From: Capnocytophaga bilenii
Lineage (GTDB): Bacteria; Bacteroidota; Bacteroidia; Flavobacteriales; Flavobacteriaceae
Assembly (NCBI RefSeq): GCF_017565765.1
Contig: NZ_JAGDYP010000010.1
Span: 1-63,886 of the forward strand
Length of the DNA stretch: 63,886 nucleotides
Direction: 5' to 3'
Shown here: one piece after another, positions 1 to 33,512 of the stretch
Layout: every line of letters begins with the position of its first letter
Position numbering within the stretch: position 1 is the first letter of the stretch
Position numbers and translations under genes: made by a program
Notes under the pieces: generated by a model
What the model was told of the DNA's origin: nothing
Databases searched by the model: none
Seen by the model: only the letters and a program-made list of their open reading frames with translations

Positions 1-126
1 GAATAACAATGAAATAATAGCTTAAATAAATTAGGCTATAGGTGGTGTTTTGGGCAAAAATTTGTTCTAAAATACAAAAAAAATCAAAAAAATACCTTTT
101 AAAATTTGGATATTAACATAGAATGT
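1..126 (+). mobile_element. Right end of a second IS110-family copy (partial)
   Basis: This stretch matches 33196-33322, the non-coding right end of the complete IS110 element, with three substitutions and one A-run length difference. The match stops after ATAGAATGT (118-126); beyond it both copies run into GGGAC-type repeat sequence. The transposase gene of this copy would lie just left of the window. The shared end point defines the right boundary of the element, with GT at 125-126 as the likely core dinucleotide. Confidence 0.85.
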
Positions 127-29003: not shown

Positions 29004-29176
29004 TTAATTTGTTCTGTACATTGAAAGGAATTGTTCGGGGGTTAGTACCGATATATCATCTACTACAAAATCCTTTACATTGCGTGTTACTACAATAGGA
29101 ATACCGTATTCTTTAGCAGTAAAGTATTGATACCCATCTTCTATATCTTTAAAATTGGAATAGAGTGCGTTTTCAA
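29004..29176. repeat. 173-bp direct repeat, copy 1 (3' end of PIN gene)
   Basis: Matches 29788-29960 with about five substitutions and no length change. It covers the last 57 codons of the PIN gene with its stop codon. Confidence 0.9.
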
Positions 29177-29417
29177 GTGCTTGCTTACTAAAAGGTAAAG
29201 CTCTAAAAATTTGATAAAGATATTTCAATATATTTACACACTCTTTTTGGTTATATTCTTTTGAAAGTTGATAGGTAATAATAGCAAATGAAAGTGTTGA
29301 TAAATAAGATTTTATTTTTCTTTCTTCGGTTAATGAAAATATCATTTGCGCATTTTTGTAATACTTTCTTTTTAGCAACATATCTAATACAACATTCGCA
29401 TCTACAAAAATTTTCAT
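29004..29417 (-). CDS. PIN-domain toxin (VapC-like ribonuclease)
   Basis: A 137-residue PIN-fold protein. Conserved acids are visible as FVDANVVLDML (Asp6), the KDIEDGYQYF region (Asp91, Asp94) and TRNVKDF (Asp116), the expected metal-binding set. PIN toxins of this kind usually cleave tRNA or other RNA and are held inactive by the partner gene. The upstream neighbour (29421-29753) ends 3 bases away and is the likely antitoxin. The last 173 bases are duplicated almost exactly at 29788-29960. Confidence 0.85.
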   Translation of the reverse strand: MKIFVDANVVLDMLLKRKYYKNAQMIFSLTEERKIKSYLSTLSFAIITYQLSKEYNQKECVNILKYLYQIFRALPFSKQALENALYSNFKDIEDGYQYFTAKEYGIPIVVTRNVKDFVVDDISVLTPEQFLSMYRTN

Positions 29418-29787: not shown

Positions 29788-29960
29788 TTAATTTGTTCTG
29801 TACATTGAAAGGAATTGTTCGGGGGTTAGTACCGATATATCATCTACTACAAAATCCTTTACGTTGCGCGTTACTACAATAGGAATATCGTATTCTTTAG
29901 CAGTAAAGTATTGATAACCATCTTCTTTATCTTTAAAATTGGAATAGAGTGCGTTTTCAA
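29788..29960. repeat. 173-bp direct repeat, copy 2
   Basis: Second copy of 29004-29176; it forms the 3' part of the truncated PIN gene. Confidence 0.9.
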
Positions 29961-30006
29961 ATAGTAAATCTAAAGCTATATTAGTATCAATAAATATCTT
30001 CTTCAT
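29788..30006 (-). pseudogene. Truncated, hybrid PIN-domain gene
   Basis: Only 72 codons, against 137 in its neighbour. The first 15 residues (MKKIFIDTNIALDLL) are a PIN start that differs from the neighbour's; from FENALYSNFK on it is nearly identical to the neighbour's C-terminus. The middle of the fold, about 65 residues, is missing, so ribonuclease activity is unlikely. It looks like a second PIN gene whose 3' part was replaced by a copy of the first through recombination. Confidence 0.8.
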
Positions 30007-31737: not shown

Positions 31738-31749
31738 GTCTTTACTTTG
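31721..31749 (+). promoter_or_regulatory. Possible promoter spanning the left IS boundary
   Basis: TTG (31721-31723) in the flank, 18 bases, TTACTTTG (31742-31749) in the IS left end; one mismatch to TAnnTTTG. In a circular IS the right end would supply a TTG 20 bases before the same element. Confidence 0.4.
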
Positions 31750-31759
31750 CACCCTGAAA

Positions 31760-31890
31760 ATAAGAAGTTATTTTCAAAGAAAAGCAGAGGAGAATAAAAG
31801 TCTGTTCATTCTGCCTCTGCCCGTTCTTTGAATACCCTGATTTTCAAAATAGAATGGTAAAATAAAGACTTGAACAATCAGGGCTGGAAT
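31760..31890 (+). ncRNA. Bridge-RNA-like unit A
   Basis: Predicted stems: TTCAAAGAA/TTCTTTGAA (31773-31781, 31824-31832); GCAGAGG/CCTCTGC (31784-31790, 31814-31820) around a 23-base loop; CCCTGATT/AATCAGGG (31835-31842, 31876-31883) around a loop with ATAGAATG (31849-31856) and TAAAGAC (31863-31869). The first matches the IS right end; the second is the reverse complement of GTCTTTA at the left end. The second loop thus fits a donor-binding loop. The short first loop shows no recognisable target guide. Confidence 0.6.
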
Positions 31891-31894
31891 TGAT

Positions 31895-31923
31895 TTGAAA
31901 TGCAAAGTTATAAAATATTTTTG
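31895..31923 (+). promoter_or_regulatory. Possible promoter of bridge-RNA-like unit B
   Basis: TTG (31895-31897), 18 bases, TATTTTTG (31916-31923). It lies between units A and B, so unit B could be transcribed separately. Confidence 0.45.
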
Positions 31924-31929
31924 AATATA

Positions 31930-32125
31930 ATATCCTATATATAAAAGAAAAATAGTATTTTTATATTTCAAAGAAGCAACAGAGGTGAACTAGGAGGACG
32001 GGTTAAGATAACGTCTTATGTCGCACATTAGTCCTCTGCCAATTCTTTGATTTAAAGCCTTATTTTTAAATAGAATGGTAGACGTTAGGGTCTAATAAAG
32101 ACTTTAGAAGCAAAGGCTTATTTTT
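31930..32125 (+). ncRNA. Bridge-RNA-like unit B (next to transposase)
   Basis: Same architecture as unit A: TCAAAGAA/TTCTTTGA (31968-31975, 32043-32050), CAGAGG/CCTCTG (31980-31985, 32033-32038) around a 47-base loop, and AAGCCTT/AAGGCTT (32055-32061, 32113-32119). The last stem differs in sequence from unit A's but still pairs. Its loop repeats ATAGAATG (32070-32077) and TAAAGAC (32096-32102), with an extra hairpin TAGAC/GTCTA between them. The first loop carries GGACGGGT (31996-32003), identical to the target left flank plus GT, then an apical TAAGA/TCTTA hairpin and GTCGCAC as a candidate right guide. Confidence 0.7.
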
Positions 32126-32149
32126 AATATCAATAATCATATTTAGAAA

Positions 32150-33160
32150 ATGAAAAACTATGTTCTTTTTACAGGGATCGATGTATCCAAAGACAAATTA
32201 GATATTTGTTATGTGGATAAAAATGGCAATGTATTAGGTTCAAAAGTAATTGACTATAAACCTAAAAACATTAAATCTATTGTGAAGGATTTGGAAAGGT
32301 TAGGTTATAACCTGACTCAAACGCTTATTTGTTTTGAAAATACAGGGGTGTATTCAATCAAATTAGGTGAAGTGCTCTCTGAGCTAAATGCTTATTATAG
32401 TGAGGTTTCAGCTCTTGAAATCAATAAATCTAAAGGTATTACTAGAGGTAAAGATGACAAAACCGATGCTAAAATGATTGCTCTTTATGCCTTGAGAAAT
32501 ATTGATAAAATAGTGCTTTCAAAGGTAACGGATGAAGCCATACAGGAACTTAAACTTCTCTTTGCTGAAAGGGAAAAAATACAAAAGTCAATAACAAGTT
32601 TGAAAATGACCCAAGAGAATGAAGGACGGGTAAATAGCAAGGCTTATGAGAGTGTTCAAAAAATAAATCAACAAACAAGAGTTGCTCTTAAAAATAGTCT
32701 AAAAGCTATTGAAAATGAAATAGAAAGGGTTTTTAAAGAGCATCCTGAATTGAAAAAGAATCGCGATTTATTGAAGAGTATAAAGGGAATTGGTACTATA
32801 ATTTCGGCTTATTTAGTAATGATTACTCATAACTTTACTAAATTTAAAAATAGCCGTAAATTTGCTTGCTATTCGGGAATAGCGCCCTTTGAACATAGCT
32901 CGGGAAAGTCGGTAAGAGGAAAGACTCAAGTAAATCATTTTGCAAATAAAAAAGTTAAGGCTTTGCTGAGTATGGCGGTTCAGTCGGCTAAAAAATATAA
33001 CTCTCAAATAAAGGCATATTTTGAGAAGAAGAAAGAGCAAGGGAAGCATATTTTGCTGATAAGCAATAACATAAAGTTTAAACTTGTAAATATTGCTTTT
33101 GCAGTAATCAAGAGAGGAACCCCTTATGTAGACATATATAAATATGCTACCATAGCATAG
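32150..33160 (+). CDS. IS110-family transposase (DEDD recombinase)
   Basis: A 336-residue recombinase. The N-terminal RuvC-like domain shows GIDVSKDKLDICYVD (Asp11), LICFENTGVYS with the Glu, and GKDDKTDAKMIALYAL with the last two acids near 103-106. A coiled region follows, then the C-terminal domain with KSIKGIGTIISAYLVM and ACYSGIAPFEHSSGKSVRGK, which includes the serine region. The bridge-RNA-like units lie upstream, the position reported for the IS110 subgroup. The protein is full length and without frameshift, so the element may be active. A hairpin follows at 33168-33187. Confidence 0.95.
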   Translation: MKNYVLFTGIDVSKDKLDICYVDKNGNVLGSKVIDYKPKNIKSIVKDLERLGYNLTQTLICFENTGVYSIKLGEVLSELNAYYSEVSALEINKSKGITRGKDDKTDAKMIALYALRNIDKIVLSKVTDEAIQELKLLFAEREKIQKSITSLKMTQENEGRVNSKAYESVQKINQQTRVALKNSLKAIENEIERVFKEHPELKKNRDLLKSIKGIGTIISAYLVMITHNFTKFKNSRKFACYSGIAPFEHSSGKSVRGKTQVNHFANKKVKALLSMAVQSAKKYNSQIKAYFEKKKEQGKHILLISNNIKFKLVNIAFAVIKRGTPYVDIYKYATIA

Positions 33161-33512
33161 GAGAAAAAAGAGTGTATTAATACTCTTAAATATTTGAATA
33201 ACAATGAAATAATAGCTTAAATAAATTAGGCTATAGGTGATGTTTTGCTCAAAAATTTGTTCTAAAATACAAAAAAAAATCAAAAAAATACCTTTTAAAA
33301 TTTGGATATTAACATAGAATGTAGGTCTTGTGAGACTTTTGGGACGGGTAGGACTTGTGGGAGTGGTGAGTGAATTTTGAATTTTGAATTTTGAATTGGG
33401 CACAAGCTGCAAGCTTGCGCCAGCGGATAAAAAGAGATACAGACTTCGCTAGAAAGATATTATCAGCGAAACTATAGTTAATAATTGAACTTTATTTTGT
33501 ACCTTTGCGGCT
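33161..33512. other. IS right end, target repeat and module A
   Basis: 33161-33322 is the IS non-coding right end, with a small hairpin (AAGAGT/ACTCTT, 33168-33187). 33323-33370 is GGGAC-type repeat, including GGGACGGGTAGGACTTGTGG at 33341-33360. 33372-33426 is module A. The rest is AT-rich sequence leading to the dnaB promoter element. Confidence 0.75.
33500..33507 (+). promoter_or_regulatory. -7 element of dnaB
   Basis: TACCTTTG ends only five bases before ATG 33513; no TTG stands 19 bases upstream. If used, the mRNA would start at or next to that ATG. Confidence 0.5.

What the first reader, a model, noticed from the sequence alone, without database searches (positions are those of the whole stretch)
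31740..32149. IS110 element with two tandem bridge-RNA-like units that share donor guides but differ in the target loop
Seen directly: units A (31760-31890) and B (31930-32125) share a frame of three stems (TTCAAAGAA/TTCTTTGAA; CAGAGG/CCTCTG; a third stem). The third stem is CCCTGATT/AATCAGGG in A and AAGCCTT/AAGGCTT in B, so pairing is kept though sequence changed, which argues for a selected RNA. Both second loops hold ATAGAATG (same as the IS right end, 33314-33321) and TAAAGAC (complement of GTCTTTA, 31738-31744). The first loops are unrelated: 23 bases in A, 47 in B. Known: IS110 bridge RNAs pair one loop with donor ends and one with target. Inference: one transposon encodes two guides for the same donor but different targets, or A is a decayed or regulatory copy. 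I know of no described IS110 with tandem bridge RNAs.
Basis: partly seen in the sequence, partly recalled or inferred. Interest (0 to 1): 0.92.

Follow-up and report, generated by a model that had tools for sequence, protein, structure and literature searches.

The report
IS110 with a target-less duplicate bridge RNA
A bacterial jumping gene carries two side-by-side versions of the RNA that tells it where to land; only the second can choose landing sites, while the first has lost its target-reading part but keeps the part that recognises the jumping gene itself, and may be a leftover or a regulator.

Summary
An IS110 element (31738-33321) carries two bridge-RNA-like units before its recombinase gene. 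All seven left ends found in the genome start outside unit A, so A travels with the element. Unit B is a complete, canonical bridge RNA: its guides match 6 of 7 left flanks (8-9 of 10 bases; 0.4% of controls) and 4 of 5 right flanks (7-9 of 10; 2.8% of controls). A matches none. A's target loop is 23 nt against 44-49 nt in 13 canonical loops; it lacks target guides and both inner hairpins but keeps the stems and exact donor guides. 'Two guides, two targets' is therefore not supported; 'decayed or regulatory copy' is. Seven near relatives have one unit each (the nearest that could be measured is 48% identical in recombinase). A lies where theirs does: 26 nt after A comes their gene-start context with ATG turned ATA (25-27 nt to ATG in the seven). 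So A looks like the ancestral guide with a dead start codon, B like the second copy. The spacer holds a host-type promoter motif pointing left, antisense to A. Most likely A is a target-blind fossil; an antisense regulator or donor-only helper is not excluded. One other element (G633) has a duplicated target loop.

The parts
31738..33321 (+). whole IS110 element with its GT core (left core 31738-31739, right core 33321-33322)
   Evidence: shared span of three complete copies with different flanks
31742..31749 (+). left-end -7-like box TTACTTTG, candidate sense promoter completed by the right end in the circle
   Evidence: CTTTACTTT in 6 of 6 relatives tabulated, TTG at a fixed place in their right ends; sigma-A -7 consensus TAnnTTTG from PMC9723704 (passages); one mismatch; activity not shown
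31756..31883 (+). unit A: 5' hairpin 31756-31775, stem I 31773-31781/31824-31832, stem II 31785-31790/31814-31819, short first loop 31791-31813, stem III 31835-31842/31876-31883
   Evidence: weak scores against canonical loop models (14.9 and 6.5 bits)
31849..31856 (+). unit A left donor guide ATAGAATG (same as right end)
31863..31869 (+). unit A right donor guide TAAAGAC (complement of left end GTCTTTA)
31902..31926 (-). host-type promoter motif (-7 box TAACTTTG, 31910-31903) pointing left over A; also holds CAAAGTTATA, the dead form of the relatives' CAAAGTTATG gene start
31916..31923 (+). weak rightward box TATTTTTG, possible promoter of B
   Evidence: 7 such patterns in the window, 2.7 expected
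31945..32119 (+). unit B, canonical bridge RNA: stem II 31980-31985/32033-32038, stem III 32055-32061/32113-32119, inner donor hairpin 32079-32094
   Evidence: 61 bits; 46.2 bits
31994..32003 (+). B left target guide GAGGACGGGT
   Evidence: 6 of 7 left flanks match 8-9 of 10 in this register
32017..32026 (+). B right target guide TATGTCGCAC
   Evidence: 4 of 5 right flanks complementary at 7-9 of 10 in this register
32070..32077 (+). B left donor guide ATAGAATG
32096..32102 (+). B right donor guide TAAAGAC
32150..33160 (+). IS110 recombinase, 336 aa
33314..33321 (+). right end ATAGAATG
1..125 (+). right end of another copy of the same element at the window start

Best explanation
The element moves with unit B as its bridge RNA: B's first loop reads GGACGGGT on the left of the site and the complement of GTGCGACA on the right, and its second loop reads the joined element ends. 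Unit A descends from the ancestral bridge RNA at the left end and is followed by the dead start codon of an ancestral gene copy. It arose by duplication of the stretch 'bridge RNA plus gene start', or by deletion between two tandem copies, and has lost its target guides and inner hairpins. A is target-blind and does not direct insertion. Shown by computation: anatomy, flank matching, collinearity with relatives, copy boundaries. Inferred: that A is mainly a passive leftover, kept beside the essential left end. A regulatory role is the main alternative. The confidence given is for the assignment of roles (B guides, A is target-blind); within it I give the passive fossil about 0.5-0.6.
For: Guide-flank matches for B and none for A, with controls. 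A's loop 23 nt against 44-49 nt and without the invariant loop ends. Model scores 61 against 14.9 and 46.2 against 6.5 bits. Single units of 181-192 nt in seven near relatives. Stem III to start: 26 nt after A, 25-27 nt in 7 of 7 relatives; alignment of A's downstream stretch to relatives' gene starts better than most shuffles in 8 of 10. 7 of 7 left ends outside A.
Against: A still has perfect stems, a good fold and donor guides identical to B's over 13 and 11 nt, more than a long-dead relic need keep; it may be recent. The spacer also resembles host promoter regions, which weakens the fossil-start reading. One left flank (C18) and the window copy's own right flank fit B poorly. No transcript or activity data.
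Confidence: 0.8

Rival explanations
1. A is an 'anti-bridge' regulator. The spacer promoter makes a leftward RNA whose open loop is complementary to the donor guides; it pairs with B's donor loop and limits transposition when integrated copies accumulate, much as the antisense RNA of IS10 limits its transposase mRNA (IS10 is recalled, not looked up).
For: Host-type promoter motif in the right place and direction: 34 genome matches (3 of them in this element's copies), none in the reversed control; 19 of 20 fetched instances have an open frame 20-44 bases downstream in that direction, 3 of 20 in the other. Predicted loop:B duplex -25.5 kcal/mol against a best of -24.4 and a mean of -14.8 in 200 shuffled loops. 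It would explain why donor guides stay and target guides go.
Against: No RNA data. I made the motif pattern from this site and one other, so its perfect match here is by construction. The better fold of A's minus strand is no support: single-unit relatives show the same. The promoter may simply read outward into flanking DNA.
Confidence: 0.2
2. A is a donor-only half guide. It supplies donor loops while B supplies target loops, so that two RNAs share one synaptic complex.
For: In IS621 the target and donor loops of a complex appear to come from two bridge RNA molecules, and separate loop RNAs support recombination in vitro (PMC11208158, passages). A keeps donor guides and stems. Another element has an extra target-only loop.
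Against: A lacks the inner donor hairpin; in IS621 replacing part of that hairpin reduced activity. B already has a full donor loop. A scores only 6.5 bits against the donor-loop model.
Confidence: 0.12
3. A is a working second guide with a different target.
For: Intact donor guides and stems.
Against: Loop half the canonical length, no conserved loop ends, no flank match in 7 left and 5 right flanks.
Confidence: 0.04
4. A belongs to another element or the tandem is an assembly artefact.
For: The assembly breaks at copies of this element: 5 of 6 partial copies lie at contig ends.
Against: Three complete copies on three contigs with different flanks hold both units at about 98% identity; four more left ends start at A's side.
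Confidence: 0.02

Closest known systems
IS621 and other IS110-group bridge RNA systems (PMC11208160, PMC11208158)
   Same: DEDD/serine recombinase, guide RNA in the left end, 5' hairpin plus target and donor loops, left and right guides, core dinucleotide, junction promoter (motif only here)
   Different: Two units instead of one; the first lacks target guides and inner hairpins; an antisense-directed host-type promoter motif between them
IS110 seekRNA of ISEc21 (PMC11187229, passages)
   Same: A short target-reading RNA from the upstream non-coding region guides insertion; there a 58-nt form sufficed
   Different: Here the extra unit is the opposite: donor guides without target guides
TIGR-Tas arrays (PMC12045711, passages)
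   Same: Several guide units in a row, served by a protein structurally related to IS110; that paper calls IS110 bridge RNAs a single two-stem unit
   Different: Only two unequal units, no array, full recombinase; the TIGR-Tas model reaches 33.6 bits against a cut-off of 100
Single-unit relatives: Chryseobacterium sp. SNU WT5 plasmid element (L042) and L047, L049-L053
   Same: Same loop consensus, same end sequences, unit at the left end
   Different: One unit only

Membership tests
IS110 family element | DEDD/serine recombinase with catalytic residues | tested here: met
   Pfam, NCBIfam (156 against 140 bits) and IS621 alignment; residues D11, E63, D103, D106, S251 by counting along the alignment, catalytic residues of IS621
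IS110 family element | Ends joined around a core dinucleotide, no long terminal repeats | tested here: met
   GT at 7 left and 5 right ends; relatives have equal cores at both ends in 5 of 6
IS110 family element | Circular intermediate and junction promoter | tested here: inconclusive
   Promoter-like motif only; no circle or transcript data
Bridge RNA: unit B | Target loop with two guides matching the insertion flanks | tested here: met
   6 of 7 left, 4 of 5 right flanks
Bridge RNA: unit B | Donor loop with guides matching both element ends | tested here: met
   ATAGAATG and TAAAGAC
Bridge RNA: unit A | Target loop with two guides matching the insertion flanks | tested here: not met
   0 of 7 left and 0 of 5 right flanks above the control mean by more than one base; loop 23 nt
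Bridge RNA: unit A | Donor loop with guides matching both element ends | tested here: met
   same guides as B
Bridge RNA: unit A | Inner hairpin of the donor loop | tested here: not met
   absent in A; two inner pairs kept in 8 of 8 canonical donor loops (B and seven relatives)
Bridge RNA (both units) | Binds the recombinase and supports recombination | not testable with these tools
   needs experiment
TIGR-Tas | Array of short guide units with a Tas protein | tested here: not met
   two unequal units only; TIGR-Tas model below its cut-off

The most novel reading that the evidence does not exclude
A duplicated bridge RNA has been turned into an antisense regulator: a host-type promoter in the spacer makes an RNA complementary to the donor guides, so integrated copies restrain the guide RNA of newly made circles. 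This would be copy-number control of an RNA-guided transposon through its own guide RNA.
Probability: 0.2. Interest if true: 0.82.

Novelty: new variant of a known kind. Interest (0 to 1): 0.55.

Why it matters
The IS110 papers consulted describe one bridge RNA per element. Here the RNA has been duplicated and the copies have diverged in what they can read, and another element shows an independent duplication of the target loop. That shows how guide RNAs of RNA-guided recombinases can be copied, moved away from the element end and trimmed into half units, and offers a natural test of whether target and donor loops can come from different RNAs. If A is regulatory, it would make testable how these transposons limit themselves.

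Tried and rejected
Second guide for another target: rejected on loop anatomy and flanks. A as part of a neighbouring element or an assembly error: rejected, 7 of 7 left ends found and 3 of 3 complete copies.

Strand asymmetry of folding as evidence for an antisense RNA: A's minus strand folds better than its plus strand (1 of 200 shuffles reach the difference), but so do the single-unit relatives L049, L051, L052 and L053 (0, 2, 1 and 4 of 200; L010 9, L050 22, L046 71, L047 87), so it was discarded. A's short loop contains AGTCT and CATTCT, pieces like the element's own ends; these are short and partly explained by its closing stem, so nothing is claimed.

Rfam at gathering scores: only a tRNA in the window. 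Close DNA relatives of the element: none in plasmids beyond one 99-base coding match, none in phages, none in viral contigs, and in the other 19 genomes of the genus only matches of 26-71 bases. The one scan of genome contigs returned one distant locus.

Limits: models R1 and R2 do not report A itself at default settings, so units as worn as A elsewhere would be missed. For the near relatives the short left ends (181-192 nt) leave no room for one. Rows dropped: L046 was lost to a name clash with an alignment row (L042, the same element, was counted). In one search seven of nine relatives' start contexts were not found, for the same reason; one search repeated them from locus files only. L048 shows no unit upstream of its gene, L043, L044 and L069 gave no frame to my detector, L054 and L062 are partial; none was used for the single-unit count.

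Full report
What is there. The window holds a complete IS110 element from 31738 to 33321. Its 336-aa product matches Pfam DEDD_Tnp_IS110 and Transposase_20, passes the NCBIfam IS110 'RNA-guided transposase' cut-off (156 against 140 bits) and aligns over residues 4-326 with IS621 and ISCro4 in the PDB. Counting along the IS621 alignment, the five catalytic residues named in PMC11208158 (passage) are kept as D11, E63, D103, D106 and S251.

Boundaries. By DNA search the genome shows three complete copies, four further left-end pieces and two further right-end pieces, five of the six pieces at contig ends. One right-end piece is window 1-125. All seven left ends begin GT|CTTTACTTTGC, outside A; all five right ends finish ATAGAAT|GT. 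The three complete copies have both units and are about 98% alike. So A is part of what moves. Contigs C1 and C4 share an AT-rich repeat at the left flank, so the seven left flanks are not all independent. The C14 piece keeps 68 bases of the left end and breaks inside A's first loop.

Which unit guides. [quoted passage not shown] B fits. Its left guide GAGGACGGGT matches 6 of 7 left flanks at 8 or 9 of 10 bases in one register; the seventh (C18) reaches 7 of 10 only in another register. Its right guide is complementary to 4 of 5 right flanks at 7, 7, 8 and 9 of 10 in one register; the window copy's own right flank does not fit (5 of 10). Among 3375 control 10-mers of the window with GT at the same place, 0.4% reach 8 on the left and 2.8% reach 7 on the right in those fixed registers; in any register 2.3% (left) reach 8 and 17% (right) reach 7. 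A's loop gives 4 to 6 for the left and 4 to 5 for the right flanks, no better than the control means of 5.6 and 5.4.

Anatomy of A against canonical units. Thirteen canonical target loops (B and twelve relatives) have 44-49 nt between the stem II arms and share GAAC near the start and AT.AG near the end; A has 23 nt and neither. A covariance model of these loops scores B 61 and A 14.9 bits; a donor-loop model scores B 46.2 and A 6.5 (models; scores; B was among the sequences both models were built from). A keeps stem I, stem II and an 8-bp stem III of its own sequence, and its two donor-guide blocks (13 and 11 nt) are identical to B's. Stem III differs in sequence but pairs fully in the 14 units whose arms I wrote out by eye. 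A folds well (z -4.9).

Relatives. The nearest named relative is on a Chryseobacterium plasmid (48% identical). A search of 395 genomes of the order gave 27, own genome included, with recombinases at E 1e-60 or better. Seven near ones with readable left ends (L046, L047, L049-L053; L042, L070 and L071 repeat two of them) each show one unit, at the very left end, 181-192 nt from the end to stem III. The target-loop model gave hits at E 0.1 or better in 32 of 395 genomes of the order and 34 of 395 of the class, own genome included in both. In only one genome, G633, do two hits lie within 1 kb: they start 119 nt apart. There the upstream copy is a target loop for which I saw no donor loop, with almost the same left guide as the full unit behind it; its own fold is not remarkable (-20.4 against -17.2, sd 3.1, in simple shuffles). 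The donor-loop model gave hits in 16 of 395 genomes and no close pair. Neither model would see a unit as worn as A.

Origin. In 7 of 7 near relatives the gene's ATG lies 25-27 nt after stem III; after A's stem III there are 26 nt to an ATA, in CAAAGTTATA where six of the seven have CAAAGTTATG. Local alignment of A's downstream stretch to relatives' start contexts is matched by only 0-7 of 300 shuffles in 8 of 10 relatives, but by 187 (L046) and 33 (L064) in the others. CAAAGNTATG occurs in 7 of 28 distinct recombinase start contexts and in 0 of 80 other open frames of the same loci. So A and the spacer are laid out like the ancestral guide plus gene start with its start codon lost; B with the present gene follows. 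A tandem duplication inside one element and a deletion between two tandem copies would both give this. The same spacer aligns even better with host intergenic stretches (0 of 200 shuffles as good in 3 of 3), so its sequence has two overlapping explanations.

Promoters. CTTTACTTT at the left end with TTG at a fixed place in the right end recurs in 6 of 6 relatives tabulated, which fits a junction promoter of the flavobacterial TAnnTTTG type (PMC9723704, passages) just before A. In the spacer, GCAAAGTTATAAAATATTTTTGAAT is a form of a motif found 34 times in the genome with up to two mismatches (three of these in copies of this element) and not in the reversed control. I made the pattern from this site and one other, so their perfect match is by construction. 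I fetched 20 other instances: 19 of 20 have an open frame starting 20-44 bases downstream in the TAnCTTTGC direction and 3 of 20 in the other. In the element that direction is leftward, antisense to A, and also outward. A rightward TTTG-N18-TATTTTTG lies in the same place, but such patterns are not rare (7 found, 2.7 expected).

What A does. A cannot choose a target in the known way. In the seekRNA work target bases in the flanks were needed for circle formation too (PMC11187229, passages), so A should not direct excision either (inference). Three roles remain: a fossil, a donor-only helper, or the template of an antisense RNA whose loop is complementary to B's donor guides. The helper idea draws on IS621, where the loops of one complex appear to come from different RNA molecules and separate loops work in vitro, but where the inner donor hairpin, which A lacks, mattered. 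The antisense idea rests on the promoter motif and on complementarity (duplex -25.5 kcal/mol; 200 shuffled loops at best -24.4, mean -14.8); that complementarity follows from A and B sharing donor guides. A tempting support, the better fold of A's minus strand, failed its control in four relatives. I judge the fossil most likely and the antisense regulator the most interesting reading not excluded.

Novelty. Searches of the held papers for IS110 with bridge RNA (19 papers), seekRNA (9), IS110 with bRNA (4), IS110 with tandem and bridge RNA (6), bridge recombinase or donor-binding loop (13) and IS110 with antisense, transposase and guide RNA (5) showed no tandem or target-less bridge RNA in the titles and abstract starts listed. 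The word 'tandem' does not occur in the main text of PMC11208160, PMC11187229 or PMC11208158. [quoted passage not shown] Most subscription papers and all bioRxiv preprints are outside the library, so this is not proof of absence.

Noticed in passing
L057 (G633, minus strand), target loops at 2575-2632 and 2694-2752: An IS110 element of another genus with two target loops in tandem; the upstream one has no donor loop that I could see and nearly the same left guide (GCGACGGC).
   Followed up: partly
starts of recombinase genes in L047, L049-L053, L056, L063, L064, L067: CAAAGTTATG at the gene start, read on the other strand, is a TAnnTTTG box pointing back over the bridge RNA; a conserved antisense promoter in relatives would be worth testing.
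   Followed up: partly
bridge RNA regions of L049, L051, L052, L053: The minus strand folds better than the plus strand beyond shuffles, in single-unit relatives as well as in A; cause unknown.
   Followed up: partly
window 31540, 27650, 59720 (minus); 667, 33500, 39691 (plus), and 20 fetched genome sites: Host promoter motif, AT-rich then TAnCTTTGC, followed by an open frame close downstream in 19 of 20 fetched instances.
   Followed up: yes
G000 C14:158040-158107 (L041): A copy cut down to 68 bases of the left end, broken inside A's first loop and followed by other sequence.
   Followed up: no
window 29004-29417 and 29788-30006, minus strand: Two open frames share an identical C-terminal stretch (YQYFTAKEYxIPIVVTRNVKDFVVDDISVLTPEQFLSMYRTN), a full and a shortened copy side by side; by recall PIN-like, not searched.
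   Followed up: no
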